64,000 nt of DNA from Methyloversatilis thermotolerans (GTDB lineage Bacteria; Pseudomonadota; Gammaproteobacteria; Burkholderiales; Rhodocyclaceae). The position numbers were made by a program, and so were the translations under genes. Under the pieces are notes generated by a model, which saw nothing but the letters and a program-made list of their open reading frames with translations, searched no databases and had not been told where the DNA came from. The DNA lies in NCBI RefSeq assembly GCF_000372885.1, contig NZ_KB889967.1:4032060-4096059 (forward strand), in the 5' to 3' direction. Positions 22,108 through 42,204 of this stretch are shown here, one piece after another (position 1 is the stretch's first letter; every line of letters starts with the position of its first letter).

Positions 22108-22413
22108 GCCAGCTCGAGGCGGGACGCGGCTGTGCCCCGGTGCGCCGCGTCCCGCGACGGTTCGCCGTCCGCTGCGCGGGACATGACTTTCGCATCGGAT
22201 CGGGCGCGATGCCCGACCTGAGCGCTACGCCCGGTGCGCGCGCCGATACCGCGCCGGTGTCGGCCGGGTGGGCCGGGCGAGCGTGACTTTTTCATCGTTT
22301 TTGTCGCGTATTTTTACAAACGTTAAGCCAGGTAAAATCCATCTCGTTGATTTGTATCAGTGGCCCGGAAATTGCAGAGGGGTTGGCAACCTATCTTTCT
22401 GCATGACCGGATC
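22108..22413 (+). other. 306-nt intergenic region before the large exported-protein operon
   Basis: The first part holds a 12-bp GC-rich hairpin (22119-22130 with 22144-22155) without a T tract, probably ending the BON gene transcript. The second part is unusually AT-rich for this genome (22286-22360) and contains an inverted repeat TTTGT-N11-ACAAA (22300-22320), a candidate activator site 41 nt upstream of the sigma-54 promoter. No gene was recognised. Confidence 0.6.
22361..22376 (+). promoter_or_regulatory. sigma-54 (RpoN) promoter of the PEP-CTERM-led operon
   Basis: TGGCCCGGAAATTGCA has the obligatory GG-N10-GC spacing and a full TTGCA -12 element; the -24 element differs from TGGCACG at one base. 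It lies 38 nt before the ATG at 22414. In bacteria with the PEP-CTERM/exosortase system, sigma-54 and the PrsK/PrsR two-component system are known to drive PEP-CTERM genes, so this placement is expected. Confidence 0.8.
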
Positions 22414-22962
22414 ATGACCCGTCCTTGCCTCTTCCCCGTATTCCGTCTTTGCTTGCTGCTGCCCCTGCTGGCGGTGACGCATGTCCACGCCGCGCTGATC
22501 AGCTACACCACGCAGTCACTCGGCGGCGCGCTCTACCGGTATGACTACACGATCACGCACCAGGCGGGCGAGGACCCGCTGCACCTGGTCGACATCGAAT
22601 TCGATCCCGCCCTCTATCTCGAATCCTCGCTGAACATCGTCAGCGATCCGGCACTTGCAGCAGACTGGGACCAGATCATCATCGGTTCGCAGCCCGGCCT
22701 GCCGGCACTGTTCGATCTGCTCGCCTTGGGCAGTCCGCTGGACGGCGGTGCGTCGCTGTCCGGCTTCGCCATCGAATTCGAATGGCTGGGCGCCGGCGTG
22801 CCGGGCTCGCAGGCCTTCCTGGTCGTGAATCCGGACACCTTCGACACCGTATCCACTGGCCGCACCAACGCTGCCGCGACGGTGCCGGAGCCGGCATCCT
22901 GGATGCTGGCGCTGACCGCGCTCGCGCTGGCGCTGGCATTCCGCCCGCGGTCCGGCCGCTGA
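22414..22962 (+). CDS. PEP-CTERM sorting domain protein
   Basis: A 182-residue exported protein. The signal peptide of about 25 residues ends in HAA. The mature part has a beta-sandwich-like pattern of alternating hydrophobic residues (YRYDYTITHQAG near 42) seen in many small PEP-CTERM proteins. The C-terminal signal is VPEPASWMLALTA, then a hydrophobic helix and the basic end RPRSGR. The ATG is chosen because it directly precedes the signal peptide. It is the first gene behind the sigma-54 promoter and probably the first of an operon running to 42204. Confidence 0.85.
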   Translation: MTRPCLFPVFRLCLLLPLLAVTHVHAALISYTTQSLGGALYRYDYTITHQAGEDPLHLVDIEFDPALYLESSLNIVSDPALAADWDQIIIGSQPGLPALFDLLALGSPLDGGASLSGFAIEFEWLGAGVPGSQAFLVVNPDTFDTVSTGRTNAAATVPEPASWMLALTALALALAFRPRSGR

Positions 22963-23025
22963 TCCACCCGGGGGCGGGGCTGCCGCGCCCGCCCTGCGAA
23001 CCCCTCCACGCCAGAGTTCCGATCG

Positions 23026-26000
23026 ATGATGAAAAAGGTGACGTCGCCCGTCATGGCCATCCTGCGCGCCCTGTTCTCCCTGTTGCTGTGCTCGCTCATC
23101 CTGACGATGCCCGCATCCGCGCAAGACGCGGCCGTTTCGGTCACCGCCTACGAGCTGGTGTCCACCAAGCGCATATCCCGGCTGGAATGGGAATCGGTGT
23201 ACCGTGCCAAGGTGCTCAACGCCGGGGGGGCGCTGCATGCCGTCAGCGGGGCGGCCACCTCGCAGGCCGCTTACGTGACGGTGCAGGAAGGAACGCTGAC
23301 GGTCGGTGACCTGGCCGCAGGCGAGACGCGGCTGCCGGACGACACGATCACGCTGCGCACCAACCGCTCGACCGCCATCGATCTGCCTGCCGTATTGAGC
23401 TGGCGCTTCTCGGGCACACCTCCCGCGGGCGACAGCGAAGCGCCGCGCATTTCCGGCCTGCAGCCGACATCCGGCGCGGTGCTGGCGGCGGATGCCCTGC
23501 CGGAACTGGCGGCCGCTTTCGCCGACTCCGGCAGCGGAATCGATGTGCGTACGCTGGAAGTCGAACTCGATGGCGTGGCAATCGGTGCCCAGGTCGTAGC
23601 TTCGGCTTCGGGCTTCAGTTTCCGCCCGGCGCAGCCGCTGAGCGAAGGGCCGCACACGCTGGTCGTGCGGGTGGCCGATGCCGCCGGCAACCGCGCGTCC
23701 GCGCAGACCGGATTCGTCACGCGGACACCGCCCGAAGTGCTTACCCAGGAACCGGCGAGCGGCTTCCTGCCGCCGGGGGCGCAGCCGCTCATCCGTGCGG
23801 GCTATTTCGATCTTGGCGCCGGGATCAATACGGCCAGCGTCCGCCTGTTGCTCGACGGCGTCGATGTCAGCGCGTCCGCGCAGATCACGCCGACAGAGGT
23901 GTCCTATCCGGTTCCGGCGCCGCTCGCCGATGCAACGCATGTCGTGCAGCTTGCGGTGACCGATCACGCAGGCAATACGACGGAATCGAGATGGTCCTTC
24001 ACCACGCGGATTCCGCCATCCATCACGGACATGTCTCCCCGCGACGAGGTTCTGCCTGCGGGCGCACGGCCAACTGTTCGTGCCCGTCTCGTGACCGGGG
24101 GGGCGCCGCTCGATCTGCGCTCGCTGCGCTTCATGTTCAACGGCACGGATGTCAGTCCGGCTGTTCAGATCAGCGGCTCGGATCTGAGCTATGTCCCCTC
24201 ACAGGCCTTGCCCGAGGGGCCTTACACGCTCTATGCCGAGGTGGTGGATGCCGCGGGCATCGTGGGCAGCGCGGCTTGGGGGTTCGAGGTCGATTCCGAG
24301 AATCTGCATGCGCTCGATGTGACTTCACCTGCCGGAGGGCAGACCGTGACATCCATCGAACTTCCGGTGGCGGCTACGGTGTTCGCGAACAAGAGCACGA
24401 TTCAGAGCCTGACCGTGAACGGCTCCGCGATGACCATCCGGACGGCTGACGAATCCGGCCGCATCGGCTACACAGGCGTGGTCAAGTTGCTCGACGGCGA
24501 CAACACCCTGGAGTTCGTTGCGCGTTTCGACGATGGTACGGTCACCACCGAAAGGCGCACGGTGACGCTGGATGGCCCGCCGCGCGTGACCGTGCTCAGT
24601 CCGACCGACAAATCCATACTGGGCCGGGTACAGGACAGCAGCCCGACCGACCTCACCGGCAATGTCGAGCGGCCGGTGGCGGTGACCGGGCGCGTGAGCA
24701 AGCCGGTGGTCGCGGTGACCGTCAACCAGCAGGGCGCGGTGCTCGATGCGGCGGGCACCGGTTTCACCTTCGAGCGCTTCTTCCTGCGCGAAGGCATGAA
24801 TGTGCTCACCGTCGTCGCCACCGATGCCGCCGGACGCGTGGGTACCTCGACCATCACGGTTTCGGTGGACCAGACGGCGCCGATACTGACCATAGAGACG
24901 CCGCAGGATCTTTACGTGACTTCGGCGGCGGCCATCGATGTGCGCGGCGTGGTCAACGATGCGGTCGAAGGCATGACCGGTGCGCCCGAGCCAATGGTCA
25001 CCGTCAATGGCGTCGAGGCCCAGGTGTCCGATCGCTACTTCCTTGCCAGCACGGTGCCGCTGCAGGTGGGCGAGAACGTGCTGGACGTGGTGGCGACCGA
25101 CCATCTGGGCAACCGGCGCGTGCGCGAACTGCGCGTGAGCCGCATCGCGGTCGGCAGCCACCGCCTGTCCGCGCTGTCGGGCAACGGTCAGACCGGCGAT
25201 GTCGGGGTTGAACTGCCGCAGCCGCTGTCCATCGTCGCACTGGATCGAGATGGCGCGCCGGTCGCCGATCTGCCGGTCAGTTTCGATGTCATGCGCAATA
25301 CCGGTTCCATCACGACGGTACGCGGCCAGGTGCAGCGGCCTGATGGCGTGAACCCGGCGCGCAACATCGTCGTGCGCACCGACAGCGCCGGTCGCGCGCA
25401 AGTGTGGCTGGTGCCCGGCAAGCAGACCGGACCGGGCTCCAACGTGGTACGCGCCCAGGTATCCGCGCAGGCGGGCGCGCTGGCCAACCAGTTCGCTGGC
25501 GAGGTGTACTTCTCGGCTACGACCCGGCGCGGTGCAGTGGCCAAGGTACTGGCCGACACCGGCACCCACCAGATCGCGGAAACCGGCAGTGTGCCGCTGG
25601 AACTGCTGTCCCTGGTGGTGCGCGACGTCAGTGACAACCACCTTCCTGGCGTGCCCATCGTGTTCGCCATCGAGGAAGGCGACGCCTTCTTCGTCGATGA
25701 CAACGGGAACCGTGTGCAGAAACGCGTGCTGGTGACCGATCGCAACGGCCTCACCGCGACGCGGCCGCAGCTCGGACTGACGCCCGGTACGGTGCGCGTC
25801 AGTGCCCGCGCGCTGCGCAATGCCGATGGCGACATCGATGATCCGGCGCAACTGACCGGCAATGCGCAGTACGTCATCCAGGTGCGCGAGGCGCGCGACG
25901 GCACGACCCGCTTCCGTGGCTTCGTCTATACCGACAAGGGCGAGCCGCTGCCCGGTGTGCGCATATCGGTAGGACGTACCAGCGTGGTGTCCACCACCGA

Positions 26001-27429
26001 TGAGAGTGGCGCCTTCGTGCTGGACAACCTGCCGCCGGGGCGTGTCGACCTGTTCGTCGATGGCCGTACCAGTTCGCATCTCGGACAGGTCTGGCCCAGC
26101 CTGCATTTCGAGGCCTTCGCGGTGCGTGGCCAGGAGAATGCGCTGCCACATCCGGTCTATCTGCCACCGCTGCTGTCCTCGCAGGCCAAGGTGGTGGGGG
26201 GCAACGAGGATGTCATCCTGACCATACCGGGTATCGAAGGCTTCCAGATGAAGGTGAAGGCGAACAGCGTCACCTTCCCGGATGGCAGCCGCACCGGCAC
26301 CCTGGTGGTCAGTCCGGTCACCGCCGACAAGCTGCCGATGGCGCCACCGGCGGGCGGCGCGGCCTTCGGTCTGCCGGCGTGGACGGTGCAGCCGGCCGGA
26401 ACCCGCTTCGATCCGCCGATCGAAGTGACCTTGCCCAACAGCCGCGCCTACCCGCCCGGCGACAACCTGCCGGTGGTGCAGTGGGACCATGACCTCGGAC
26501 AGTTCGTGCCGATGGGCCGCGCCACCGTGAGCGAGGACGGTGCGCTGCTGGTGACCGATGCCGGCAGTGGCATCAGCAAGGCCGGCTGGGGTGGCCTGTG
26601 CGTGTATGACCCGGACAAGTGCGGCAAGAACGCGCCGCCCAAATGCAAGGACTGCGAGAAGCTTGATGAGAGCGGTGAATGCCCGACCTGCAAGCCTGAT
26701 CCGGAGAAGGACGGAAAGCTGGTTCTGGTACCGCCGCCGCTCAGTTCGGCCGCGTCCATCGAGTACGCCGGCAAGGGCTGGGAACAATCACTGAAGCGCC
26801 TGAAGCTGCCGGTCGAGGTCGCGATCAAGTTCAAGGGCGGCTTCAACGCGCTGGTCGAGCGTCGCTGCTGCAGCAAATCGGCGGATGGCGTCGGCAAGAA
26901 GATCACCGCCTCCGGCTTCGGCGATGTCGAGGTCGAGGGCAAGATCAACTGGGCGCCGCAGGGCTTCTTCCTGCGGCTGGCACAGAGTGCGTTGCCGGGG
27001 CTGACCGATCTGCTGGACGCGGGCCTCTATTCCAAGCTCAAGGGTGCCTTGTCGATCGGCGGCAAGGCGTCCTACTTCCCGTGTGACGTACCACCCCTGG
27101 ATGGCGAGATCGCGGGTGCTGCGACGCTCACCTTCAGCGCCATCGACGCCGAGTTGAAGTTCCCCGGCGTGGGCGACATCAAGAGCGTCACCTTCGTGGT
27201 CGGAGAAGCGGGCATCACCGGCGGCTGGAAATGGACGCTGATCGATCTGAGCGAGGCGGCCATCAAGCTCAAGCGCACAGGGTCGGCCTATCTGTTCTTC
27301 AAGTCGGAACTGAAGTGGACCTACCGCGCCGAGGAAGGCGCGTTGCTGGAACCATCGCGCAAGCTCACCATCGTCCAGGCGTCCCTGCCGCTGGGCGGCG
27401 ATGGTCTCGACACCCTGCCATTCGAATGA
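23026..27429 (+). CDS. large exported multidomain Ig-like protein (RHS-head-like)
   Basis: A 1467-residue secreted protein. A signal peptide ends near residue 33 (ASA-Q). Three tandem Ig-like repeats of about 95 residues cover roughly 139-425. Further Ig-like domains follow to about 710, then two invasin-type (Big_1-like) domains (about 715-950), a carboxypeptidase-regulatory-like domain (962-1014) and a ZU5-like region (about 1062-1185). Next comes a cysteine-rich linker (1192-1235, CxxC pairs) and a beta-rich C-terminus of unknown fold. This order resembles the N-terminal half of some RHS-repeat proteins, but no YD repeats or toxin tip follow. It starts 63 nt after the PEP-CTERM gene and overlaps the next gene by 4 nt. 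Probably an adhesin or surface scaffold. Confidence 0.72.
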   Translation: MMKKVTSPVMAILRALFSLLLCSLILTMPASAQDAAVSVTAYELVSTKRISRLEWESVYRAKVLNAGGALHAVSGAATSQAAYVTVQEGTLTVGDLAAGETRLPDDTITLRTNRSTAIDLPAVLSWRFSGTPPAGDSEAPRISGLQPTSGAVLAADALPELAAAFADSGSGIDVRTLEVELDGVAIGAQVVASASGFSFRPAQPLSEGPHTLVVRVADAAGNRASAQTGFVTRTPPEVLTQEPASGFLPPGAQPLIRAGYFDLGAGINTASVRLLLDGVDVSASAQITPTEVSYPVPAPLADATHVVQLAVTDHAGNTTESRWSFTTRIPPSITDMSPRDEVLPAGARPTVRARLVTGGAPLDLRSLRFMFNGTDVSPAVQISGSDLSYVPSQALPEGPYTLYAEVVDAAGIVGSAAWGFEVDSENLHALDVTSPAGGQTVTSIELPVAATVFANKSTIQSLTVNGSAMTIRTADESGRIGYTGVVKLLDGDNTLEFVARFDDGTVTTERRTVTLDGPPRVTVLSPTDKSILGRVQDSSPTDLTGNVERPVAVTGRVSKPVVAVTVNQQGAVLDAAGTGFTFERFFLREGMNVLTVVATDAAGRVGTSTITVSVDQTAPILTIETPQDLYVTSAAAIDVRGVVNDAVEGMTGAPEPMVTVNGVEAQVSDRYFLASTVPLQVGENVLDVVATDHLGNRRVRELRVSRIAVGSHRLSALSGNGQTGDVGVELPQPLSIVALDRDGAPVADLPVSFDVMRNTGSITTVRGQVQRPDGVNPARNIVVRTDSAGRAQVWLVPGKQTGPGSNVVRAQVSAQAGALANQFAGEVYFSATTRRGAVAKVLADTGTHQIAETGSVPLELLSLVVRDVSDNHLPGVPIVFAIEEGDAFFVDDNGNRVQKRVLVTDRNGLTATRPQLGLTPGTVRVSARALRNADGDIDDPAQLTGNAQYVIQVREARDGTTRFRGFVYTDKGEPLPGVRISVGRTSVVSTTDESGAFVLDNLPPGRVDLFVDGRTSSHLGQVWPSLHFEAFAVRGQENALPHPVYLPPLLSSQAKVVGGNEDVILTIPGIEGFQMKVKANSVTFPDGSRTGTLVVSPVTADKLPMAPPAGGAAFGLPAWTVQPAGTRFDPPIEVTLPNSRAYPPGDNLPVVQWDHDLGQFVPMGRATVSEDGALLVTDAGSGISKAGWGGLCVYDPDKCGKNAPPKCKDCEKLDESGECPTCKPDPEKDGKLVLVPPPLSSAASIEYAGKGWEQSLKRLKLPVEVAIKFKGGFNALVERRCCSKSADGVGKKITASGFGDVEVEGKINWAPQGFFLRLAQSALPGLTDLLDAGLYSKLKGALSIGGKASYFPCDVPPLDGEIAGAATLTFSAIDAELKFPGVGDIKSVTFVVGEAGITGGWKWTLIDLSEAAIKLKRTGSAYLFFKSELKWTYRAEEGALLEPSRKLTIVQASLPLGGDGLDTLPFE

Positions 27430-28004
27430 TGACGGGCGCGCTCCCCATGGCATCCACCGTTCTCGCCCAGGCGCAGGCACTGCTGGATCAACTGGCCCGA
27501 GGCCTGCGCTGGCCGCTGCTCGGCCTGGGTCTGATGCTGCTTCTGGCGGCCGGCTGGACCGGCTGGCAGGTGCTCGACCGTCAGTCCGTGTCCGAGCGCA
27601 TGCGCCCGCTGCCGGGACGCATCGAGCATTTCTCCACCAGGGTGGTGCGGCGTTCCGACTTCGGCCTTCCTGCCGGCCCCGGCGTCATGGTCGACGAGGT
27701 CGAGATCGATCTGTCCGTCCGTTATGTCTTCTCCGGTCGCAGCCATCTCGCCACGCGCTATTCGCTCACGCACGGCAATCGCTTCGCTGCGGGCAGTGGT
27801 GAAGCGATTGCCCTGCAGAACAACACCTCCACCTGGACGCCCGGGGCGACGGTTTCGCTCTGGGTCGATCCGGAGCAGCCATCCCGGGCCGTGATCGACA
27901 AACGACTGCCGGACGACTCACCCGCGCTGCTCACCCTGATCGCCCTCTCGGGATTCGCGATGCTGTGGCTGTCGATCCGCGGCTTCCGTTCCTCGCGCCC
28001 ATGA
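27426..28004 (+). CDS. DUF3592-like membrane protein
   Basis: A 192-residue protein with an N-terminal membrane helix (about residues 28-50) and a C-terminal one (about 168-183) around a soluble domain. The domain contains VRYVFSGRSHLATRYS, then SLWVDPEQPSRAVID, the pattern of DUF3592 proteins, whose function is unknown. The ATG overlaps the stop codon of the upstream gene (ATGA), indicating translational coupling. A second ATG immediately follows. Its membrane location suggests a role in export or assembly of the large proteins encoded on either side. Confidence 0.65.
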   Translation: MMTGALPMASTVLAQAQALLDQLARGLRWPLLGLGLMLLLAAGWTGWQVLDRQSVSERMRPLPGRIEHFSTRVVRRSDFGLPAGPGVMVDEVEIDLSVRYVFSGRSHLATRYSLTHGNRFAAGSGEAIALQNNTSTWTPGATVSLWVDPEQPSRAVIDKRLPDDSPALLTLIALSGFAMLWLSIRGFRSSRP

Positions 28005-28026
28005 CTCACCGCACTCTCAAGAAATC

Positions 28027-28620: not shown

Positions 28621-28702
28621 GCCGCGAACGGCATCCAGGATTGATGAAGGCCGATATCCGCGGACGGTGCGGTCGAGAGAACGGAATGAACGGGAAGACG
28701 GG

Positions 28703-34700: not shown

Positions 34701-37700
34701 GTGGCGATGCGTGGGTGGTGATCGACGATGGCAGCGATGCCGATCCCTTCATATCGACCTCCGAGCCGGCGATGGCCTTCGTGCTGGGCGACCGCAGCCG
34801 CGGCACGCCTGACCGCCTCAGTCATGTCGCATCCGGTCCCAACCGCATCGAAGCAGGGTGGAGCCGCATCACGGTGCCGGCCGGCGGCCGCATCACGCTG
34901 ATGCACTTCGCCGCGCCGCAGATCAGCCGTGCATCGGCCCGTGTCGCCGCCGAGCGGCTGAGCGCTCTGCCGCCGGAAGCCTTGCAATCGCTCAGCGATG
35001 CCGAGCGCGCCTCCATCGCCAACTTCACGCTGCCGGCCGATGGCGTGAGCACGGTGGCTGCGCTGCCGTCCCTGCTCGGCACGGTCAGCGGGCGCGTGCT
35101 GGAAGGTGACCGCCGTACAACGGTGGCGCAAGGTATCGTCCAGTTGCGCAGCCGCCACCCGCTGTTCGGTCGCAGCTGGCTGCCGGTGCAGTACAACAGT
35201 TCGGACTGCGAGTTCGAGACCGCGAGCGTGAGCACGTTGCGCGCGGATGCGGCGGGCGCGTGGTCGCTGCCGGGCCGCATGCAGGACTTCGGTTCGCTGC
35301 CGCTGCCGGTCGGTGTCGAGGTCGACGCGCGACCGGTCGAGAAGAGCTGCTCCTGGGGCTATGGCACCGGTCACCCGGTGACCGGCATCACGGCGCCCGC
35401 CGTGACCGCCATGCCGGATGTACAGACCGGGAGCGCCACGCTGGATGTCGTATTCCCCAGCGGCGTGCTGACCGGGACGGTGACCGGTCCGTCCGATTAC
35501 GGTGTCGGCGGCGGTTCGCTGCGGACCACCGTGCCTGCCGGTCGCGGTTCGGTGTCGGTCCCCATCGCCAACGACGGCAGCTATCTGCTGCCGGGCATGC
35601 CTGCGGGCAGCTATGCGCTGAGCGCCAGCGTGCCGCACAACCAGGGCACCGGCCTGATCGGCAGTCGCAGCGACGTCGGGGTGACCGAAGGCGAGGTCAC
35701 CGTGACCGACCTGCAGATCGAAGCCACCGGTTCGCTGACCGGCACGGTCATCACCGCGAATGGCGAAGCCAGCGTGAGCAGCGCAGTGCGCGTCGATTCC
35801 ATCGACGTGTCGCGCTCGATCGCGCGCTCGACCACCACCGATTCGCTCGGTCGCTACAACCTCAGCGCACTGCCGGTCGGTCGCTACCGACTGACCGTGA
35901 CCGACAGCCGCACCGGCGGCACGACGGTGATCGAGGTGGCCATTGCGAGCAACCAGGTCACCAGCCAGAACGTGACGCTGACCGGCGTCGGCGCGGTCGC
36001 TCTGCAGGTGAACTATGCGCGGGGCGCGGTCGCCGCCAGCGCCAACGTCTATCTCAGCGCGCCGGGCAGCAATATCAACAGCCGCTATGTCGGACGCACC
36101 GATGGTCAGGGCCGGCTGTCGGTGCCGACGCCGGTGGGGGCGTATTCGATCAGCGTGCGCCATCCGTCCGACTCCTCGACAACACGCGTGATCGATGGTG
36201 TGCTGGCGGCGAACAACGAAACCCAGAACCTGGCCGCCACGCTGCCGCCGCTGGCCGCGATGCGCGTCACCGTGGTGGATGCCGATGCCGGCAATGCGCC
36301 GCTGCAGGGCGTGACCGTGCGCGTCACCATGACCGGCTGCAGCGATTGCAACTATGGCGCGACCGACGGCTCCGGTCGTCTGCTCATCGCCACGTTGCGC
36401 GACGGCGCCTACACGGTGAACGTACGCACCCCGCAAGGCCGCAGTGCCGAGCTGCGCGGTGTGCTGTCCGCCGCGGACGACGGCCAGACGCTGGAGCGCA
36501 CCTTTGCGATTTCGGCGGCACAGGACCGCCTGGGCGTCATCAGCTTCGTCGGTGAGCGCCAGTTGTTCTCGGTGCCCGCCCAGGCCGGCGATGTCATTTC
36601 GGTGAACATCAATGGTGCTCCGGTCGGTGAAGCGGCCTCCACCTACATCGTCGGCGGCCAGGTGTATGCATCCGACAAGTCGCTGCTCGCCCAGGGCTAT
36701 GGCTACGACCAGCGCAACAGCTATCTTCAGTACAACGAAACCAACAACCTGCTCGCGGTGCCGGCCGCCGTTGCCGGCAGCTATCCGATCGTGGTGTCCA
36801 ACTGGCGTTCCAGTGCCAGCTATCTTGGCGGCTACCGCCTGCAGGTGCGCGTGAATGGCGAGCCGGTGACGGTGGGTGCCTATGTCGGTGGCGGCGTCGT
36901 GCGCGGCACGCTGGTGCGCGCGGATGGCGTGACGCCGGCCGTCGGCCAGCCGGTCGAACTGCAGACCGGAGACGGGCTCATGCGGGTGCGCACCTTGACC
37001 GACAGCATCGGCCAGTTCAGCTTCCCGGCGGTGCCGCTGGCGGAATACGATCTCAAGGTGCTCAGCAGCGATGCCGCACGCGTGCTCATCAGCGAGCGTG
37101 CGACGCTGGATGAGGCCGGTCAGATCCGCAGCCACGCGCTGCGGCTGCAGTCGCAGGCACGCCTTGATGTGCAGGTGACGGTCGGCGCATCGCTGTCGGT
37201 ACCGTCCTCGCTCTACCTCACGGTGACGGACGCGCTGGGCAGCCGTACCGAAGGGCCGGTGCTGTTTGCCGGCGGCAGTTCCACCAGCCAGACGCTGTCG
37301 CTGACGACCTATGGCGACACGGTGTCCGTGCGGGCGCAGCATCCGGGCAGCAGTCTGGTCGCGGTCACGCGTCAGGTGCAGCCGCAGGACGGCCAGACCT
37401 TGCCACTGACGCTGCTGTTGCAGGGGGCGCAGGTGTCCGGCGGCATCTTCACGGCGGCAGGCATGCCCTTCCAGGTGTCGATGTCGGTGGAGGTGTATCG
37501 CGCGTCCGACCGTGCCTACCTCACCGGATTTGCCACCGGGTTCGACGGCCGCTTCAGCGGCATCGTGCTGCCGGCCGGCGAGGCGCTGGTGTTCTCGGTG
37601 CAGGACCCGTACAACTCGGTCGGCAACCAGCGCACGGTCACGCTGTCGTCCGAAACCGCGAATACGGTCGACATCACGCTGGCCGGCCGCGGCGCGGTGA

Positions 37701-39718
37701 GCGGCGTGCTGCGCTCGACCACCGGTGTGCCGATCGCCGATGCCTGGGTGACCGCCTATTACATCTATGACGATCTGCGCGGCTGGGAAACCAGCATGGG
37801 TGCCAACACCGACGCCGAGGGGCGCTTCCGCTTCGATAATCTGCCGGTCGGTCGTCCGCTGCGTCTGCAGGTCGAGTACTGGCTGCGCGGCGCGCTGTTC
37901 TCGACCGAGCAGGCGGTGCAGCTCGCGACCGACCTGCAGGAACTGACGCAGGATCTGGCGCTGGCGCTGCCGTCGGCGCGCGCCACGGTGACCGTGCGTG
38001 CCGCGGACGGGCTGCCGATCGACGGTCTGTGCAGCTTCTCGCTGAATGGCGGCGGCGGTGGCGAGCTCGGGCTGGCGGCCGCGCAAGCCACGACGCTGCC
38101 GATCGGCGCGAGTTACGCGGACGAGGTGTGCGAGACGGGTGTCGTCTTCACCGCCCTGCCGGACGGGCTGTACGACGTGAGCACGCAGTACGGCAGAGCA
38201 AGTTTCGAGATCATCGACCAGAATCCGGTGACGGTGGACATCCTCGCCTCGGTGTTCAAGGGCATGACCCGCTATGCCGATGGCACGCCAGCGCCATCGG
38301 TCTTCATCGAATCGGTGATGACCGGCGCGGAAGGACCTTATGTGAGCACGCTGTCGGACGAGAATGCGCAGTACCGTCTGCTGGGCATGCCGGCCGGCGA
38401 CTGGCGGCTGGGGTTCGAGGACAGCTATGGTCTGCGCGGTGAGGCGAGCGGCAGCTTCCCCGATGCCGCAGTGGTACAGACGCGCGATCTGGTGCTGCCG
38501 CCGAGCGGCACCGTGCGTGGCATCGTTCGCGACCGCAGCGGCGCGCCGGTGATCGGTGCCGAGGTGTATCTGCGCTCGACCGCGCTGCCTTTCGACCGCT
38601 ACGTCACGACAGACCAGGACGGTCGCTTCGTCGCCGAACGCATCGCGGTGGGCGAGCTCACCCTCTATGCGCGCAATCCGGTCAGCGGTCTGGTCGCGAC
38701 CGGCAGCGCCGTGCTGCGCAACGATGGTCAGGTGATCGACGTGGTGCTGGACGAGCCCGACGTGTTCTCGCTCAGCGGGCAGGTGCTGCTGGAATCGGGC
38801 GAACCCCTGCCGGATGTCACCGTGAATGCGGTCGGTCCGGCGGTCGGACCGTTCGGCGAGTTCCTCGCCTCGGCACTGGCCGACGCCCAGGGGCGCTACC
38901 GGTTCGATGTTCTGCCTCTGGGTACGATACGCCTTCAGCTCAACGGTGGCGGCTATGCCGGTCAGGCCACGCTGGACCGGCTCACCGCGGGTAGCGCGAC
39001 GCTGGATCTGGTGGTAAGCCAGATGGTGAACATGGGCTACACATTCAATTCGCCGGACACTTCCCGCTATGATTTCGGGTGCAGCGGCACGCTCGGTGAC
39101 GGCGGCTACAACGGGCGCGGGGACGCCTACGACACCGCCTATGCGCTGAACGTGGGTGGCAGCAACTTCCCCTGCGTCGCGGTGGCCAGCCTGCGCAACG
39201 GTGGTCGCGAACTGCTGCTCGGACCGGCGCGACTGGGCGCCTTCGAGGTGGTACGGCGACTGTATGTGCCCGCCGCCGGTCGCTATGCGCGCTACATCGA
39301 GCTCATCACCAATCGCGGAACGACCGATGCGACGGTCAATGTGACGCTGTCCTCGAACCTGGGTTCCGACAGTGCCACGCGTGTCGTCGTCAGCCCCGCG
39401 GACACCGCCCATCGTTATGCGGTGACCACCGATGGCACACCGGGCAGCGATCCGGCGCTGGCCCACGTGTTCGCCGGCACGACGGCGCCGCTGGTACCGG
39501 TCGCTGCCATCAGCGGCGACAATGTGTCGACCACCTGGACGGTGAGCATTCCGGCGGGAGCGACCGTCGGTCTGATGCACTTCGCGGTGCAGCGCAATGC
39601 CGGCGACGCCGATGCCGCGCGTGCTCAGGCGCAGTCGCTGAGTGACGGCAGCGATCCGGACATGTTCCGTGGCATCGGCAGCGAGCGCAGCGCACTGCGC
39701 AACTTCATCCTTCCATGA
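28703..39718 (+). CDS. giant exported repeat protein (carboxypeptidase-regulatory-like domains)
   Basis: A 3671-residue protein. The start at 28703 has a GGGAAG ribosome-binding site; a GTG at 28667 and an ATG at 28715 are alternatives. The N-terminus has a long polar region, then a hydrophobic segment and an ALA-Q cleavage site near residue 76. A BIG2-type Ig domain (about 170-260) is followed by about 26 carboxypeptidase-regulatory-like units of 80-95 residues, each with a GxV...G...V..T..D..G.Y.F..VP.G.Y pattern. They are interrupted by two copies of a 250-residue module (1136-1397 and 1863-2114); a third ends the protein (3441-3671). A PPC-like beta-sandwich is near 2606-2723. There is no catalytic domain, transmembrane anchor or sorting signal at the C-terminus. 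Probably a long fibrous surface or matrix protein. Confidence 0.75.
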   Translation: MGSTMIDRRAKLKGGWSEREGAVPTPAVSSHGRPCDDGAERPRSLFVRLRAPVLSACRLFCLALASMLCGVQALAQSSPPAADASCTVSALNRNAPLQSDYSFTLYNLPGAAAAIGPNAPQIPAPPFRVRVTCSDGTVGETDLAYPEFGSTVVYTGAIVWRPATPVPVALGITAAQPRLNGGESTQLSALGVLRDGRQVDLTGKTRGTLFTSSNPLIATVDDAGRVAVMAQFATGSAARVVMAGQNDGVQGSTVLQLGPRGRLVGRVLQANGVSPVVGAEVSVTRNQPRETLATVRTDSNGDYLMTDVSAGAFTVSVVDPQTGDHGQAYGTLQSQGEDARIDVRMNGQGTVTVTVLDGSGSAVGNAPVTLTSLGATRDIRTVRTNASGVVVFERVPTGLLSASTTDPSSGLIGTANGQVAAGGALPLTLRLQPVASIAGSVLASDATTPQAGVQVRLVSATRGIVTQTVTAEGGAFRFDSLPLSDGPYALDAMLDGRLRGRETGIVLNQGGQVITRNIVFGPTGTVRGSITRAGGATVADAQVTVQSLVGSRLSYVARSDASGNYVIDGVPVGAFGITAVGGQGETANSGGNVPSDGAVVTLNLQLASSGIVGTVFGRDGRTPVGAGVTVTLSPGSRSVTTDAQGQFGLPISAAGSYTIEASDGSGNRGRTSVVLTTVVAGAPVTANVVFLGQGSIEGVVRDPAGLPQANVPVQISSAGLFGGSTTVQTDAEGRYRASPQFVGDFTVYARNPSTELAGFASGRLSGDGETANANVTLAATGRINGSVVRADNVTPAAGATVQLQLNGRTAITVSADASGAFDIPAVPLGDFTLLATQSADGDKGQAVSRISALNEVRTVRIRLLGLGNVNVLAQDSAGAPVAGASVTLNSGSAFGGSQTGVTDGEGRARFSRVFNGDFEVIASRGSGVERISGSAQGTLTDGRDADVVVSMSRKETGSVSGVVTQGLSAAPQSAVEVRLTRVSGSSENRVFTTGIDGRYAFEQLEVGIDYRVTARVNGRVRARADVRVSADGEAVVRDLALLGVGTVSGRTLNAQGNAPLGNIRVTLSNPDPTYGGSWDAYSQADGSYRFTDVPAGSFTLRARSGDGRLQAQDSGTVRFDQDAVQIDLNMVDSAVNLPINRYDANGFLFDLQGDGSIARGDNSVFDGDGSAARRGALLDLVVGGVGVPFLNGDGSVGRLTQDGQLLEVDELHSASGLNVSRRVYVPKQGYFARYLEVIENRTAAPITVGVRVSTHIAAGRVGARVVDSSSNDAVFTVGSGAGADRWVVADDNTDSDPFLDGGNPSVAWVFDGEGGETAAGAGGTTALNTVARLSVEWQSVTLQPGASAAFMHFTVQQTGRIPARASAQRLAALPPEALDGLTAEERAIIRNFRLPADGLSTQAPLPAVEGSSVRGTIYAGDSSTPVANATLTFKSESPYYTRTYTATSANDGRYTLASGNFGGSSVRAIPQDRFRLYATHPSTREQSPTVTAGFAAGEPVRVADVAFVNTGLLKGTVRRAGGALVTSGSVTIPYRYPSGSQGTLSASIGSDGAYLFTGLIPGDYLPQAALSHPQGQPVTGSASGPASVPAAETTVADVTLEPTGEVTGIVRAANGDPAVGVTVQLDPEYICCYVPYRQTTTDTGGRYRFTDVRTGAHALRATSSSGLAASASVSVAADTQSVSDLTLTGIGTLTVQVNFARGVAAPGASVYVVNLRSGTTNGSGSVQFSLPAGQVLTVEARHPDNSALTQSASVTLPGDGAAEALTLTLPAAGSVSGTVLRPDGSTRAAGVRVVLRRTDGVVWSRSTTTNSLGDFRFNGVPVASYSVSAEDAATARYADADILLDSDGQDSTLSLVLADNRIPLPSTMWDANNFKYDIDDGGQIGYGWRGSYSLFSGGNATVPGGAVLFVNGERFVGDGSAFLEAGKRQYAITQPTPLSGLNVSRKVFVPRGAYFARYLDTFDNPGADAVTVEVSLRSGFSDSSMRVVDTSSGDAVIDAGGDAWVVIDDGSDADPFISTSEPAMAFVLGDRSRGTPDRLSHVASGPNRIEAGWSRITVPAGGRITLMHFAAPQISRASARVAAERLSALPPEALQSLSDAERASIANFTLPADGVSTVAALPSLLGTVSGRVLEGDRRTTVAQGIVQLRSRHPLFGRSWLPVQYNSSDCEFETASVSTLRADAAGAWSLPGRMQDFGSLPLPVGVEVDARPVEKSCSWGYGTGHPVTGITAPAVTAMPDVQTGSATLDVVFPSGVLTGTVTGPSDYGVGGGSLRTTVPAGRGSVSVPIANDGSYLLPGMPAGSYALSASVPHNQGTGLIGSRSDVGVTEGEVTVTDLQIEATGSLTGTVITANGEASVSSAVRVDSIDVSRSIARSTTTDSLGRYNLSALPVGRYRLTVTDSRTGGTTVIEVAIASNQVTSQNVTLTGVGAVALQVNYARGAVAASANVYLSAPGSNINSRYVGRTDGQGRLSVPTPVGAYSISVRHPSDSSTTRVIDGVLAANNETQNLAATLPPLAAMRVTVVDADAGNAPLQGVTVRVTMTGCSDCNYGATDGSGRLLIATLRDGAYTVNVRTPQGRSAELRGVLSAADDGQTLERTFAISAAQDRLGVISFVGERQLFSVPAQAGDVISVNINGAPVGEAASTYIVGGQVYASDKSLLAQGYGYDQRNSYLQYNETNNLLAVPAAVAGSYPIVVSNWRSSASYLGGYRLQVRVNGEPVTVGAYVGGGVVRGTLVRADGVTPAVGQPVELQTGDGLMRVRTLTDSIGQFSFPAVPLAEYDLKVLSSDAARVLISERATLDEAGQIRSHALRLQSQARLDVQVTVGASLSVPSSLYLTVTDALGSRTEGPVLFAGGSSTSQTLSLTTYGDTVSVRAQHPGSSLVAVTRQVQPQDGQTLPLTLLLQGAQVSGGIFTAAGMPFQVSMSVEVYRASDRAYLTGFATGFDGRFSGIVLPAGEALVFSVQDPYNSVGNQRTVTLSSETANTVDITLAGRGAVSGVLRSTTGVPIADAWVTAYYIYDDLRGWETSMGANTDAEGRFRFDNLPVGRPLRLQVEYWLRGALFSTEQAVQLATDLQELTQDLALALPSARATVTVRAADGLPIDGLCSFSLNGGGGGELGLAAAQATTLPIGASYADEVCETGVVFTALPDGLYDVSTQYGRASFEIIDQNPVTVDILASVFKGMTRYADGTPAPSVFIESVMTGAEGPYVSTLSDENAQYRLLGMPAGDWRLGFEDSYGLRGEASGSFPDAAVVQTRDLVLPPSGTVRGIVRDRSGAPVIGAEVYLRSTALPFDRYVTTDQDGRFVAERIAVGELTLYARNPVSGLVATGSAVLRNDGQVIDVVLDEPDVFSLSGQVLLESGEPLPDVTVNAVGPAVGPFGEFLASALADAQGRYRFDVLPLGTIRLQLNGGGYAGQATLDRLTAGSATLDLVVSQMVNMGYTFNSPDTSRYDFGCSGTLGDGGYNGRGDAYDTAYALNVGGSNFPCVAVASLRNGGRELLLGPARLGAFEVVRRLYVPAAGRYARYIELITNRGTTDATVNVTLSSNLGSDSATRVVVSPADTAHRYAVTTDGTPGSDPALAHVFAGTTAPLVPVAAISGDNVSTTWTVSIPAGATVGLMHFAVQRNAGDADAARAQAQSLSDGSDPDMFRGIGSERSALRNFILP
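32107..32892 (+). repeat. unrecognised module, copy A1, of the giant protein
   Basis: About 262 residues. Key landmarks are SGLNVSRRVYVP, then FARYLE, a NDAVF segment, WVVADDNTDSDPF, AWVFDG, the strand AAFMHFTVQQ, and a terminal LPPEALDGL...IIRNFRLP. It is Asp/Gly-rich in its first part, as in calcium-binding beta proteins, which is inference. The same landmarks recur in copies A2 and A3. Confidence 0.7.
34289..35044 (+). repeat. unrecognised module, copy A2, of the giant protein
   Basis: About 252 residues. It repeats the A1 landmarks in the same order: SGLNVSRKVFVP, FARYLD, GDAVID, WVVIDDGSDADPF, FVLGD, ITLMHFAAPQ, and LPPEALQSL...IANFTLP. The level of identity with A1 in the conserved blocks makes common descent clear by eye. 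Confidence 0.7.
39023..39715 (+). repeat. unrecognised module, copy A3 (C-terminal), of the giant protein
   Basis: About 231 residues forming the protein end. Landmarks are VVRRLYVP, YARYIE, a short DTAHRYAV segment, GSDPALAHVFAG, VGLMHFAVQR and ALRNFILP. It is more diverged than A1/A2 and lacks the LPPEAL motif, but keeps the order and the final NF-LP. Confidence 0.65.
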
Positions 39719-39725
39719 GAAAGTC

Positions 39726-40238
39726 ATGAACAAGATCCTGCTTTCCGTCACCCTTGCCGCGACGCTGACATGGGTGTCCGCGCCCGGTGCCGCGGAGCTT
39801 CATCTGCCGGACTTCGATGCGCTCGACGCCGATGCCGTGCCGGTGACCGGCAGCGAGCTCGGTCAGGGCGGCAACTGGGTGCTTGCCGTGGTCGATGGCG
39901 GACTGCCGAGCGCACGTCGCTTTCTGGATGCGCTGGGCTCGAAGAACGAACGCTTCGGCAGCAATGTGGTGGTGCTGGTGGTGGGGACGACGCAACAGTT
40001 CGACGCGCTGCGCAGCGCCTACGTCGGCCTCGGCGACGTGCGCTGGCTGCGTGCGCAGAATCCCGGCGTGCTCGCCACGCTGGGCCTGACCGGCGTGCCG
40101 GCGCGCTTTGCCCTGCATCCGGATGGCCGCATTGCCACGCGCCGTGCCGGACTGGGACGCAGTCCGGACGAGGTGGCGCGTCAGGTGAGGGCGTGGGCGG
40201 GCAGCAGCGCCCAGGGGGAGGGCGAACATGCGCAATAG
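39726..40238 (+). CDS. exported thioredoxin-fold protein without CxxC
   Basis: A 170-residue protein with a signal peptide of about 23 residues (PGAA). The mature part looks like a thioredoxin/TlpA fold: a GGNWVLAVVD strand, VVVLVVGT, then GLTGVPARFALHPDGRI, where VPA corresponds to the cis-proline loop. No cysteine is present, so it cannot be a disulfide reductase of the usual kind. It begins 7 nt after the giant gene and overlaps the ankyrin gene by 11 nt. A structural or chaperone-like role is more likely than redox chemistry. Confidence 0.6.
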   Translation: MNKILLSVTLAATLTWVSAPGAAELHLPDFDALDADAVPVTGSELGQGGNWVLAVVDGGLPSARRFLDALGSKNERFGSNVVVLVVGTTQQFDALRSAYVGLGDVRWLRAQNPGVLATLGLTGVPARFALHPDGRIATRRAGLGRSPDEVARQVRAWAGSSAQGEGEHAQ

Positions 40239-40815
40239 GGCCGATGGCATGCGCGTGGTGGCGGGATGGCTGGTGGCGATGCTGGTCGCGCCCGCGCTGG
40301 CCGATGACCGCGAGGCCGCACGGCACGCACTCGAAGCGGCCCGCGTGAAGGCGGACAGCGGTGCGCTGGTGCAGTACGCCGGCATCGGCGACGGCTATGT
40401 CGTCAAGCAGTTGCTGCTCGCCGGCGTCCCGGCCGACGCACCGCTGCCGGGACGCCAGTTGCGCCCGCTGCACAATGCGGCCGCGCAAGGCCATCTGCGC
40501 ATCGTCGATCAGTTGATCGGCGCCGGGGCCCGCGTCGATGCGGTCGACGACAATGGCTGCACCGCGCTGGCCGCGGCGAGCTGGCGCGGCCATCTCGACG
40601 TCATGCGTTCTCTTCTCGATGCCGGCGCGTCGGTCTCCGCCGGTTCTCCGGCCTGTCCGGCGCTGCATCAGGCTGTACTGGGCGCGCAGGCGTCCGCCAT
40701 CAAGCTGCTCATCGCGCGCGGTGCCGATCCTGCTGAGCTGGACGGCGACCGGCGCGACGCGTGGACGCTGGCCCGGATTCTTCATCGCGAGGCCTTGTTG
40801 CCCGCCGCACAGTGA
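40228..40815 (+). CDS. periplasmic ankyrin-repeat protein
   Basis: A 195-residue protein with a signal peptide of about 25 residues (PALA-D) and about four ankyrin repeats between residues 50 and 190. Recognisable helices are RPLHNAAAQGHLRIVDQLI, then TALAAASWRGHLDVMRSLL and PALHQAVLGAQASAIKLLI. Ankyrin repeats mediate protein contacts. The start overlaps the upstream gene, and the downstream gene starts 6 nt after the stop, so it is embedded in the operon. Confidence 0.85.
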   Translation: MRNRADGMRVVAGWLVAMLVAPALADDREAARHALEAARVKADSGALVQYAGIGDGYVVKQLLLAGVPADAPLPGRQLRPLHNAAAQGHLRIVDQLIGAGARVDAVDDNGCTALAAASWRGHLDVMRSLLDAGASVSAGSPACPALHQAVLGAQASAIKLLIARGADPAELDGDRRDAWTLARILHREALLPAAQ

Positions 40816-40821
40816 AACCGA

Positions 40822-42204
40822 ATGAGAAATCCACTTGATGGAGTCCGCCGGCACGGCGGCCTCATGTTCACCCTGCTGATCGCGCTGGCGTCGCCGGCTC
40901 ATGCGGTCGAGCTGCACGATACCCAGGTCGCGCGCGGAGAATGCGCAACGCTGGCCGGCGCGCACGCGGGACGCGCGCTGATGCCGGTATCGGTATTCCA
41001 CGACTGGGACAAGGCGCGCAACGAAGCGGCCGCCATGGCGAAGGCGTGGGACAAGGAGCCGCCGGGTCTGGCCTGGACGCGGCTGCAGCTTGCCATGCAC
41101 GTGAAGCACAAGGCGTCGCCGACGCGCGCGGCGCGCGGGCTGGCGCTGATGCACGTGGCCATGCGCGATGCGGCACTGGCTGCGCAGACCTGCGGCGAGG
41201 ACGTCGCGCTGGCGCAGTCCATGGCCGCAGCCCATGTGCTCGGCTATCTGTTCAACGCCGAAGAGCGCGCCTTCGATCGCATCGTGTTCGAACTGGCCGC
41301 CCGCCATCGCGGACACGCGCGCGACAAGCCGGACGAGGCGAGCGCGCGCGCGCTGTCACTCGGCTACGAGGTGGGGCGACAGCTCGTTGCCTATGGCGAT
41401 TCGGATGGCGCGCAGCACGGCTGGAACGGCGTGCGACTGCAGTGGTACGGTGAAGGACGCTACTACGGCCCGGGCAGTTGGGAGCCGACGCCGCAGTACT
41501 TCTACTTCCCGCCGTCCGAGCCCTTCGCGCCGCTCTGGCGCACATGGGTGCCCCAGGACCTTGATGCCTTGCGTCCGGTGCCGCCGCGCTACGGCTCACC
41601 CGCCTACCTGAAGGACCTGCAGGAGGTGATCGATGTGCAGCGTGCCTTGACGCCGGAACAGCGGGCGATCGCCGAACACTGGGTGGACGGGCACGGCTCG
41701 GTCACGCCTCCCGGTCACTGGAACCAGATCGCGCTCGATGCGCTGGCCGAGCGGCCGCTCGCCGATGCGAGGCAGGCGCTGGATCTGTTCGCCGATCTGA
41801 ACATGGCCATGGCCGACGTATTCATCGTCGCGTGGGACGTGAAGTACTACTACTGGTCGGTGCGCCCGGTCACTGCCGCGAAGCAGTTGCTCGGTGTGGA
41901 CTACAAGCCGGCCATCCTGACGCCCCCCTTTCCCGGCTATGTGTCCGGGCATGCCGCCACCAGCGGTGCTGCCGGCCGGGTGCTCGGCCACTACATGCCG
42001 GACCGGGCGGCACGCTTCAATGCGCAGGCGGAACAGGCGGCCATGTCGCGCCTGTATGGTGGCATCCACTTCCGGCACGACAACGAGGACGGCTTGACGC
42101 TGGGTCGGCGCATCGCCGGCGCGGTGATCGAACGCGCCCGGCCGCACGAGGCAAGCGTCAGCGCATCAGCCGAACAGGCCGAGGCTCAGCAGCAGGGGCA
42201 GTGA
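40822..42204 (+). CDS. vanadium-dependent haloperoxidase / PAP2-superfamily enzyme
   Basis: A 460-residue exported enzyme with a signal peptide of about 28 residues (AHA-V). The three oxyanion-binding motifs of the acid phosphatase/haloperoxidase superfamily are present in order: KYYYWSVRP near residue 340, PGYVSGHAATSG near 371-382, and SRLYGGIHFRHD near 409-420. The conserved Lys, Arg, Ser, Gly-His, Arg and His are all visible. It may be a haloperoxidase or a phosphatase; the sequence alone does not decide, though the long helical N-terminus favours the haloperoxidase group. It is the last gene of the 22.4-42.2 kb run, and its 3' end overlaps the convergent carrier gene by 39 nt. Confidence 0.82.
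   Translation: MRNPLDGVRRHGGLMFTLLIALASPAHAVELHDTQVARGECATLAGAHAGRALMPVSVFHDWDKARNEAAAMAKAWDKEPPGLAWTRLQLAMHVKHKASPTRAARGLALMHVAMRDAALAAQTCGEDVALAQSMAAAHVLGYLFNAEERAFDRIVFELAARHRGHARDKPDEASARALSLGYEVGRQLVAYGDSDGAQHGWNGVRLQWYGEGRYYGPGSWEPTPQYFYFPPSEPFAPLWRTWVPQDLDALRPVPPRYGSPAYLKDLQEVIDVQRALTPEQRAIAEHWVDGHGSVTPPGHWNQIALDALAERPLADARQALDLFADLNMAMADVFIVAWDVKYYYWSVRPVTAAKQLLGVDYKPAILTPPFPGYVSGHAATSGAAGRVLGHYMPDRAARFNAQAEQAAMSRLYGGIHFRHDNEDGLTLGRRIAGAVIERARPHEASVSASAEQAEAQQQGQ

What the first reader, a model, noticed from the sequence alone, without database searches (positions are those of the whole stretch)
22361..42204. A 20-kb operon of exported proteins behind one sigma-54 promoter
Seen: eight same-strand genes with gaps of 63, 22, 82, 7 and 6 nt or overlaps, all predicted exported or membrane-bound, with no terminator between them and one clear promoter at the front. 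They include a PEP-CTERM protein, two very large repeat proteins (1467 and about 3671 residues), a DUF3592-like membrane protein, a thioredoxin fold without cysteine, an ankyrin protein and a vanadium-haloperoxidase-type enzyme. Inference: an undescribed surface or matrix system in which the small proteins assist export or folding of the fibres and the peroxidase/phosphatase modifies them or their surroundings.
Basis: partly seen in the sequence, partly recalled or inferred. Interest (0 to 1): 0.85.

Follow-up and report, generated by a model that had tools for sequence, protein, structure and literature searches.

The report
Gene cluster with exchangeable protein tip
A Methyloversatilis bacterium carries a run of genes for very large, probably exported proteins, one of which ends in a tip that has been swapped together with two small neighbouring genes, the pattern left by bacterial weapons and their matching antidotes.

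Summary
The eight same-strand genes are real. Relatives of most of them sit together in two other Methyloversatilis species, a Burkholderiales MAG, Roseateles and a Rhodanobacteraceae MAG. The 1467-residue protein is a trunk with a replaceable tip. Window and M. universalis DNA is 81-82% identical on both sides of a 2.25-kb stretch (26695-28945) without DNA similarity; a third species gives nearly the same breakpoints. That stretch holds the tip, genes 3 and 4, and the leader of the giant gene. The pattern recurs in Tahibacter and in genome G497. The trunk ends in TTR and ZU5-like domains shared with Rhs/teneurin-like proteins, but no YD shell was found. Best reading: a shell-less relative of Rhs/teneurin-like polymorphic toxins, with genes 3/4 as immunity-type partners and the giant protein as a conserved partner of this trunk subtype. 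Toxicity is not shown. The 'single sigma-54 promoter, no terminator' claim is weak: the site is the published PEP-CTERM box, and two relatives have a strong hairpin directly after the PEP-CTERM gene, though the window's own hairpin is not significant.

The parts
22313..22376 (+). PEP-CTERM box: motif TTTACAAACGTTAA (22313-22326) and sigma-54 -24/-12 site (22361-22376)
   Evidence: conserved in M. universalis and, more loosely, in G526; matches the published two-motif element (PMC1569441 passages); PrsR in own genome over cut-off
22414..22962 (+). gene 1, PEP-CTERM-type protein (182 aa); probably a separate or attenuated unit
   Evidence: 71% and 66% identical in M. universalis and G526
22963..23025 (+). 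gap between genes 1 and 2, with a terminator-type hairpin in two relatives
   Evidence: z +0.8 in the window, -2.9 in M. universalis, -6.6 in G526
23026..27429 (+). gene 2 (1467 aa): Ig-like trunk, TTR, ZU5-like junction, Cys-containing linker, exchangeable tip
25915..26661 (+). TTR (aa 964-1011) plus ZU5-like junction (aa 1014-1212), the most conserved part of gene 2
   Evidence: Pfam CarboxypepD_reg near its cut-off (32.0 against 32.3 bits); AF2 pLDDT mostly 70-95; Foldseek TTR and ankyrin/UNC5b ZU5 among other beta-sandwich hits; 98% win-MU
26695..28945 (+). exchanged cassette: tip of gene 2, gene 3, gene 4 and the leader of gene 5
   Evidence: no nucleotide similarity to M. universalis between 26694 and 28946, nor to G526 between 26694 and 28936; median identity of 100-nt bins to M. 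universalis 0.43 inside, 0.83 outside
27429..28004 (+). gene 3 (191 aa), DUF3592 protein with hydrophobic segments; candidate tip partner
   Evidence: no BLASTP match in M. universalis
28027..28620 (+). gene 4 (197 aa), probably exported protein with a tentative NTF2-like fold; candidate immunity-type partner of the tip
   Evidence: 29% win-MU against 63% MU-G526; AF2 pLDDT 75; weak Foldseek hits to NTF2-like folds
28703..39718 (+). gene 5, giant protein (3671 aa) of CarboxypepD_reg repeats
   Evidence: 87% MU, 70% G526
28931..29500 (+). N-terminal domain of gene 5 (motif CxVxxxNR) plus Ig-like stretch, found beside gene-2-type genes in distant genomes
32111..32887 (+). A module 1 of gene 5
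   Evidence: no PDB relative at E<=1
34286..35035 (+). A module 2 of gene 5
39020..39715 (+). A module 3 of gene 5
39726..40238 (+). gene 6, cysteine-free, probably exported protein (170 aa), fold unconfirmed
40228..40815 (+). gene 7, probably exported ankyrin-repeat protein (195 aa)
40822..42204 (+). gene 8, vanadium-haloperoxidase/PAP2-type enzyme (460 aa) with the vanadate-site motifs

Best explanation
Genes 2 to 5 form a surface-displayed polymorphic-toxin-type locus of the Rhs/teneurin lineage that has no YD shell. Gene 2 is an exported stalk of Ig-like domains ending in a TTR domain and a ZU5-like domain; the C-terminal tip, which carries the activity, is attached directly after a short Cys-containing linker. 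Tips are exchanged by recombination together with the small genes behind them (here genes 3 and 4), which are most likely the immunity or partner proteins that protect the producing cell. Gene 5, a giant rod of TTR-like repeats, is a conserved partner of this trunk subtype that I infer presents or anchors the tip-bearing protein. Genes 6-8 are an accessory set that goes with giants carrying A modules. Shown: operon layout, cassette exchange, covariation of the small genes with the tip, homology of the trunk end to Rhs/teneurin-like proteins, partner linkage. Inferred: surface location, toxicity, immunity, the role of gene 5, any role of the peroxidase.
For: (1) Cassette exchange: win-MU 81% nt to 26694, none to 28945, 82% after; nearly the same breakpoints with G526. 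(2) Replacement rather than fast drift: tips MU-G526 83% and MU-BK 72% are nearly as conserved as the trunk ends (90%, 75%), while win-MU is 98% in the trunk end and 27% in the tip. (3) Gene 4 follows the tip, not the trunk: win-MU 29%, MU-G526 63%; gene 3 none against 40%. (4) Repeats elsewhere: Tahibacter trunk 98% (107 aa), tip 36%, next gene 27%, gene after that 84%; G497 trunk 81%, tip 30%, next gene 32%. (5) The same TTR plus junction occurs in a 3112-aa Rhs protein with PT-HINT and, at 28% identity, in a 2606-aa protein with a teneurin YD-shell match whose best solved relative is a teneurin-like protein, 9pt5, E 6e-88. (6) 5 of 9 tips scanned carry HExxH, seen in 0.4-1.2% of shuffles of each; these five are partly related to each other. 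(7) A gene-5-type gene in the same cluster in 9 of 9 strong-trunk loci with enough flank; by profile, strong hits in 5 of 369 class genomes, each among the 6 with a strong trunk match.
Against: No toxicity or immunity test exists. The window tip has no family match and AF2 gave most of it pLDDT below 40, so its activity is unknown. Gene 4's NTF2-like fold rests on weak Foldseek scores (best E 3.6e-3). Orphan immunity genes are common in such systems (recalled); the gene 4 family was found only in the 3 of 13 genus genomes with the locus. ZU5 autopeptidases of Rhs toxins end in a CxH motif (PMC3482391 passage); I see none in the junction alignment. The gene-5 profile includes three genes found beside trunk hits, and the score thresholds were set after seeing the results, so only G417 and the 363 negatives are independent. 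None of the six genomes with only weak trunk matches (G173, G272, G285, G297, G309, G351), the YD-shell one included, has a gene-5-type hit. No delivery machine was recognised in the cluster, and no GspD over cut-off was found in the own genome.
Confidence: 0.65

Rival explanations
1. Surface adhesin or recognition system: the tip is a binding domain (to EPS, kin cells or surfaces) that varies to change specificity, and genes 3/4 are tip-specific folding or anchoring partners. No killing is involved.
For: The window-type tips scanned are rich in amphipathic beta strands (z 2.2-4.4 against shuffles, 4 tips) and no catalytic motif was found; Ig/TTR architecture is adhesin-like; VARTIG of Thermococcales is a comparable hypervariable Ig module for which non-toxin roles are also proposed (PMC8416519 abstract).
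Against: One trunk relative is an Rhs protein with PT-HINT, and 5 other tips carry HExxH metallopeptidase motifs. The small genes diverge with the tip in three groups, typical of immunity.
Confidence: 0.22
2. One reading: one sigma-54-driven 20-kb operon making an extracellular matrix, where the small proteins assist export and the peroxidase cross-links the fibres.
For: Tight spacing, a conserved promoter, and in 5 of 5 loci with A-module giants the cysteine-free protein, ankyrin and haloperoxidase genes are present, against 0 of 3 distant loci without A modules within the flanks fetched.
Against: Exchange of genes 3/4 with the tip; hairpin after gene 1 in two relatives, though not significant in the window; no gene 1 relative found beside the Burkholderiales, Roseateles and Rhodanobacteraceae loci.
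Confidence: 0.1
3. Ordinary fast evolution or an assembly artefact explains the divergent stretch.
For: Other parts diverge too: gene 2 aa 1-500 is only 74% win-MU, single 100-nt bins outside the cassette fall to 0.45, and G526 has a second unaligned stretch at 22819-23339.
Against: Identity peaks (98%) directly beside the break and nearly the same breakpoints appear with two genomes; tips MU-G526-BK are conserved at 71-83%; the reading frames of genes 2-4 are intact in all three species.
Confidence: 0.03

Closest known systems
Bacterial teneurin-like proteins (TLPs), PMC13018210 (abstract, Results parts 1-2 of 3 and Discussion read, passages on TIP)
   Same: Ig/adhesion N-terminus, TTR domain followed by a conserved extra domain, highly variable C-terminal domain, a diverse small gene right behind it, rare and scattered in bacteria; CTDs there include proteases and OMP-like folds
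   Different: TLPs are identified by FN-plug, NHL and YD-shell, which I did not find here; CTDs there average about 15 kDa and one was shown inside its shell, here the tip is about 244 residues and unshelled; no giant partner gene or haloperoxidase appears in the sections that I read
Rhs-type and other polymorphic toxin systems (Zhang et al. 2012, PMC3482391; passages)
   Same: Exchange of C-terminal tip with downstream genes; ZU5 domain in RHS toxins; Imm-NTF2 and Imm-Ank are listed immunity classes; a Sec/T2SS-dependent class exists
   Different: No RHS repeats, HINT or known toxin domain in gene 2; ZU5-like part lacks the CxH site; conserved giant partner
VARTIG modules of Thermococcales (PMC8416519, abstract and section list only)
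   Same: Large Ig-domain protein with a hypervariable C-terminus and variable downstream genes, polymorphic-toxin-like layout
   Different: Archaeal, the variable part is itself an Ig domain; no TTR/ZU5 trunk reported in the abstract
PEP-CTERM/PrsK-PrsR sigma-54 element (PMC1569441 and PMC9850573, passages)
   Same: TTTACA motif plus -24/-12 site before a PEP-CTERM gene; PrsR present
   Different: Such genes are mostly single-gene operons; whether genes 2-8 belong to it is open
Vanadium haloperoxidase, chain 4cit
   Same: The vanadate-site motifs; E 1.6e-26
   Different: Substrate and halide use unknown; sits in this cluster as an accessory gene

Membership tests
Polymorphic toxin systems | Conserved trunk with exchangeable C-terminal tip | tested here: met
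Polymorphic toxin systems | Tip-specific gene(s) directly downstream, exchanged with the tip | tested here: met
   (by sequence; specificity of binding not tested)
Polymorphic toxin systems | Tip is toxic and neutralised by the downstream gene | not testable with these tools
   no bench data; window tip has no family match
Polymorphic toxin systems | Recognisable toxin or releasing-peptidase domain | tested here: not met
   none in gene 2 by Pfam or NCBIfam; present in the L072 relative (PT-HINT) and HExxH in 5 other tips
Bacterial teneurin-like proteins | FN-plug, NHL and YD-shell superfold | tested here: not met
   no RHS/YD/NHL match in gene 2 at E<=1; FN-plug was not searched with a model of its own
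Bacterial teneurin-like proteins | TTR followed by TIP domain | tested here: inconclusive
   TTR met; the ZU5-like junction lies where TIP lies and is shared with a YD-shell protein, but its profile did not hit 9pt5, a 2237-aa TLP chain in the same PDB copy, at E<=10
Bacterial teneurin-like proteins | Variable CTD with small gene immediately downstream | tested here: met
Imm-NTF2 immunity proteins | NTF2 fold | tested here: inconclusive
   AF2 pLDDT 75; Foldseek best E 3.6e-3, 3k7c TMt 0.68, none at E<=0.001
ZU5 autopeptidases of RHS toxins | C-terminal CxH active site | tested here: not met
   fold resemblance only; no CxH in the junction alignment (read by eye)
PEP-CTERM box genes | TTTACA motif plus sigma-54 site upstream; PrsR in genome | tested here: met
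Vanadium haloperoxidase/PAP2 superfamily | KX6RP, SGH, SRX5H motifs (recalled motif set) | tested here: met
Thioredoxin-like (gene 6) | Detectable thioredoxin fold | tested here: inconclusive
   no significant Pfam or PDB sequence match; not folded

The most novel reading that the evidence does not exclude
A teneurin/Rhs-lineage polymorphic toxin that has dispensed with its protective YD shell and works with a dedicated giant TTR-repeat partner (gene 5). The giant is the display or delivery partner of this trunk subtype, and in one branch a haloperoxidase fixes or activates the assembly through the A modules.
Probability: 0.22. Interest if true: 0.85.

Novelty: new variant of a known kind. Interest (0 to 1): 0.62.

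Why it matters
Bacterial teneurin-like toxins, relatives of animal teneurins, are said to package their toxin in a protein shell and to lack any obvious delivery machinery (PMC13018210). A conserved relative that keeps the TTR/ZU5-like trunk end and the exchangeable tip plus partner gene but drops the shell asks what the shell is for. The giant gene that sits beside one RHS-bearing form (L072) and several shell-less forms is a concrete candidate partner that can be tested by deletion; it was not found in the genomes whose trunk matches only weakly.

Tried and rejected
Tip homologues by profile in the order: only the own genome clearly (2 of 330 at E<=0.01, the second at E 0.0095 not taken as real), so no deep alignment for folding; AF2 of the tip failed (mostly pLDDT below 40). 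The 371-aa gene beside L075 was considered as a gene 4 relative and dropped (16-21% identity). The L075 tip is only doubtfully of the window tip family (hhalign of the M. universalis/G526/Burkholderiales tips against it 2%; against the window tip 70%; against the Roseateles tip 44%). A type II secretion link was considered because a gsp cluster adjoins the Burkholderiales locus, but the own genome has no GspD over cut-off, so it stays a lead. TIP identity of the junction was tested against the solved TLP and not found. Gene 8 alone is not a marker of the cluster: weaker relatives occur in 18 other genomes of 150 in the order, and in the short loci fetched around them no other cluster gene was found except one weak gene 2 match in L019. 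Defence-system library: only ankyrin-type matches, for gene 7. No match of A modules to solved structures. Not searched: phage, plasmid, E. coli, viral and metagenome collections. Literature: the eight searches, judged from their listings and the papers opened, showed no description of this locus or of a shell-less teneurin-type toxin with a giant partner; the library lacks most subscription papers and preprints.
Full report
What is there. Families: PEP-CTERM-type (just under cut-off), Big_13/Glucodextran_B/CarboxypepD_reg (gene 2), DUF3592 (gene 3), none (gene 4), 23 CarboxypepD_reg stretches (gene 5), none (gene 6), ankyrin (gene 7), PAP2 with haloperoxidase residues (gene 8). The nearest solved relative of gene 8 is the vanadium haloperoxidase 4cit.

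The promoter. The site at 22361-22376 is a sigma-54 site, and TTTACAAACGTTAA starts 48 nt further up. This matches the published PEP-CTERM box (PMC1569441, passages read), and its regulator PrsR is in the genome over cut-off. GG-N10-GC and the TTTACA motif recur in M. universalis and G526. [quoted passage not shown] In M. universalis and G526 a hairpin follows gene 1 (z -2.9 and -6.6); the window's own hairpin is not better than shuffles (z +0.8). So one transcript for all eight genes is unproven, and a block or attenuator after gene 1 is plausible.

Conservation. Using the window's proteins against the fetched loci: M. universalis and G526 have the whole set, but the place of gene 3 is taken by a different protein; the Burkholderiales MAG has a gene 2 relative, two small membrane-type proteins, gene 4, giant, genes 6, 7, 8; Roseateles has a gene 2 relative, two gene 4 relatives, a giant in two overlapping frames, genes 7 and 8; the Rhodanobacteraceae MAG has giant, genes 6, 7, 8, then a gene 2 relative and small exported-type genes; Tahibacter has a haloperoxidase followed by a gene 2 relative on two short contigs. 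These loci were found through gene 8, except G526, found through gene 2. Within the genus the locus is accessory: gene 2 in 3 of 13 genomes. Downstream neighbours are shared between window and M. universalis, while G526 has different neighbours.

The exchange. Window and M. universalis DNA align at 81% up to 26694 and at 82% from 28946, with nothing between; G526 breaks at 26694 and 28936 (and is also unaligned at 22819-23339). In 100-nt bins against M. universalis the median identity is 0.83 outside (174 bins, range 0.45-0.94) and 0.43 inside (22 bins, range 0.14-0.58). In protein terms gene 2 reaches 98% just before the break and then falls to 27%. The M. universalis tip is 83% identical to that of G526 and 72% to that of the Burkholderiales MAG, nearly as conserved as the trunk ends (90% and 75%), so tips do not simply drift fast: the window's tip was replaced. 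Gene 3 has no match in M. universalis, and gene 4 is 29% identical, while genes 1, 5, 6, 7 and 8 are 66-87%. Gene 4 of M. universalis is 63% identical to that of G526, gene 3 40%. Two further groups repeat the pattern: Tahibacter within one genome (trunk 98% over the 107 aa present on both contigs, tip 36%, next gene 27%, following gene 84%) and G497 in two tandem cassettes (81%, 30%, 32%). Of nine tips scanned, the five from Tahibacter (2), G497 (2) and the Rhodanobacteraceae MAG carry HExxH (0.4-1.2% of shuffles of each); window, M. universalis, Roseateles and L075 do not and show amphipathic beta-strand character instead (z 2.2-4.4). The tips of L072, L073 and L076 were not scanned.

What the trunk is. 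AF2 models the end of the trunk well (pLDDT mostly 70-95) and the tip poorly. Foldseek gives, among other beta-sandwich proteins that rank higher, TTR domains (5aq0, TMt 0.8), teneurins and the ZU5 domains of ankyrin and UNC5b; whole-model TM-scores are low. A profile of the junction also touches ankyrin ZU5 at E 0.02-0.04. The same TTR plus junction is found in an Rhs protein with DUF6531, RHS repeats and PT-HINT (L072) and, at 28% identity, in a protein with RHS repeats and a teneurin YD-shell match (L079). Gene 2 has no RHS, YD or NHL match. In published bacterial teneurin-like proteins the order is TTR, TIP, FN-plug, NHL, YD-shell, CTD with an immunity gene behind (PMC13018210). Our junction lies in the TIP position, but I could not show by sequence that it is TIP.

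The partner. Next to trunk hits in three distant genomes (G190, G296, G392) stands a gene whose N-terminus matches that of gene 5 (BLASTP E 1e-5 to 5e-9). A profile of that domain, which includes those three, hits 5 of 369 class genomes strongly (E<=3e-39); all five are among the six with a strong trunk match (E<=5e-36) (Fisher p 1e-10). Three of the profile's members came from beside trunk hits, and I set the two thresholds at the gaps seen in the lists, so the independent part is G417 and the lack of strong hits in the other 363 genomes; 21 further genomes matched weakly (E 1e-10 or more), mostly over the Ig-like part. Against a wider claim: the six genomes with weak trunk matches only, among them the one with the YD-shell protein, have no gene-5 hit. 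Counting strong-trunk loci with enough flank (window, M. universalis, G526, Burkholderiales MAG, Roseateles, Rhodanobacteraceae MAG, L072, L073, L075), 9 of 9 have both genes. G417, G497 and Tahibacter contigs are too short to tell. Genes 6-8 are not core: all three are present in 5 of 5 loci whose giant has A modules and in 0 of 3 distant loci without them, within the flanks fetched; Roseateles has 7 and 8 only.

Mechanism and limits. I judge a toxin/immunity-type system most likely (0.65) because exchange of a tip with its downstream genes is its hallmark, because a trunk relative is an Rhs protein with a pretoxin HINT domain, because other tips carry a metallopeptidase motif, and because NTF2-fold proteins are a listed immunity class (PMC3482391 passages). 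Gene 4's NTF2-like fold is tentative. Surface display, toxicity, immunity and the role of gene 5 and of the haloperoxidase are inferences. The adhesin/recognition rival (0.22) fits the beta-rich window tips and is not excluded.

Novelty. In the held library I found no account of this locus. It is a new variant of the polymorphic-toxin kind: a shell-less relative of teneurin-like/Rhs toxins with a conserved giant partner.

Noticed in passing
L052, 11292-19500 (+): A type II secretion gene cluster (GspG, GspF, GspE, secretin, plus a transglycosylase) lies directly upstream of and divergent from the gene 2 relative in the Burkholderiales MAG; a possible export route.
   Followed up: partly
L011, 15213-19682 (+): A tandem run of six similar proteins of 220-278 codons behind the gene 2 relative (two compared: 72% identical), resembling an immunity-gene array.
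   Followed up: partly
L074, 2-5755 (+): Two tandem partial trunk-plus-tip cassettes, each with its own follower gene, on one short contig of G497.
   Followed up: partly
L070 and L071: Tahibacter contigs end inside the trunk, as expected if several near-identical trunk copies with different tips broke the assembly.
   Followed up: partly
L053, 2551-7517 (+): Four genes with similar C-termini in a row upstream of the giant gene in the Rhodanobacteraceae MAG; two of them match the ankyrin repeats of gene 7.
   Followed up: no
L033 and L019: Haloperoxidase-type domains inside open frames of 3085 and 2860 codons in two other genomes of the order, perhaps fused to large repeat proteins.
   Followed up: no
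L073, 10149-10922 (+): A DsbA-like protein with CPFC sits between the gene 2 and gene 5 relatives in G190, and a second thioredoxin-type gene (CAYC) is in L011; cysteine-rich linkers may need it (read from translations).
   Followed up: no
window 32339-39751 (-): A 2470-codon open frame runs antisense to the giant gene; at about 68% G+C this is probably a mirror of codon bias, not a gene.
   Followed up: no
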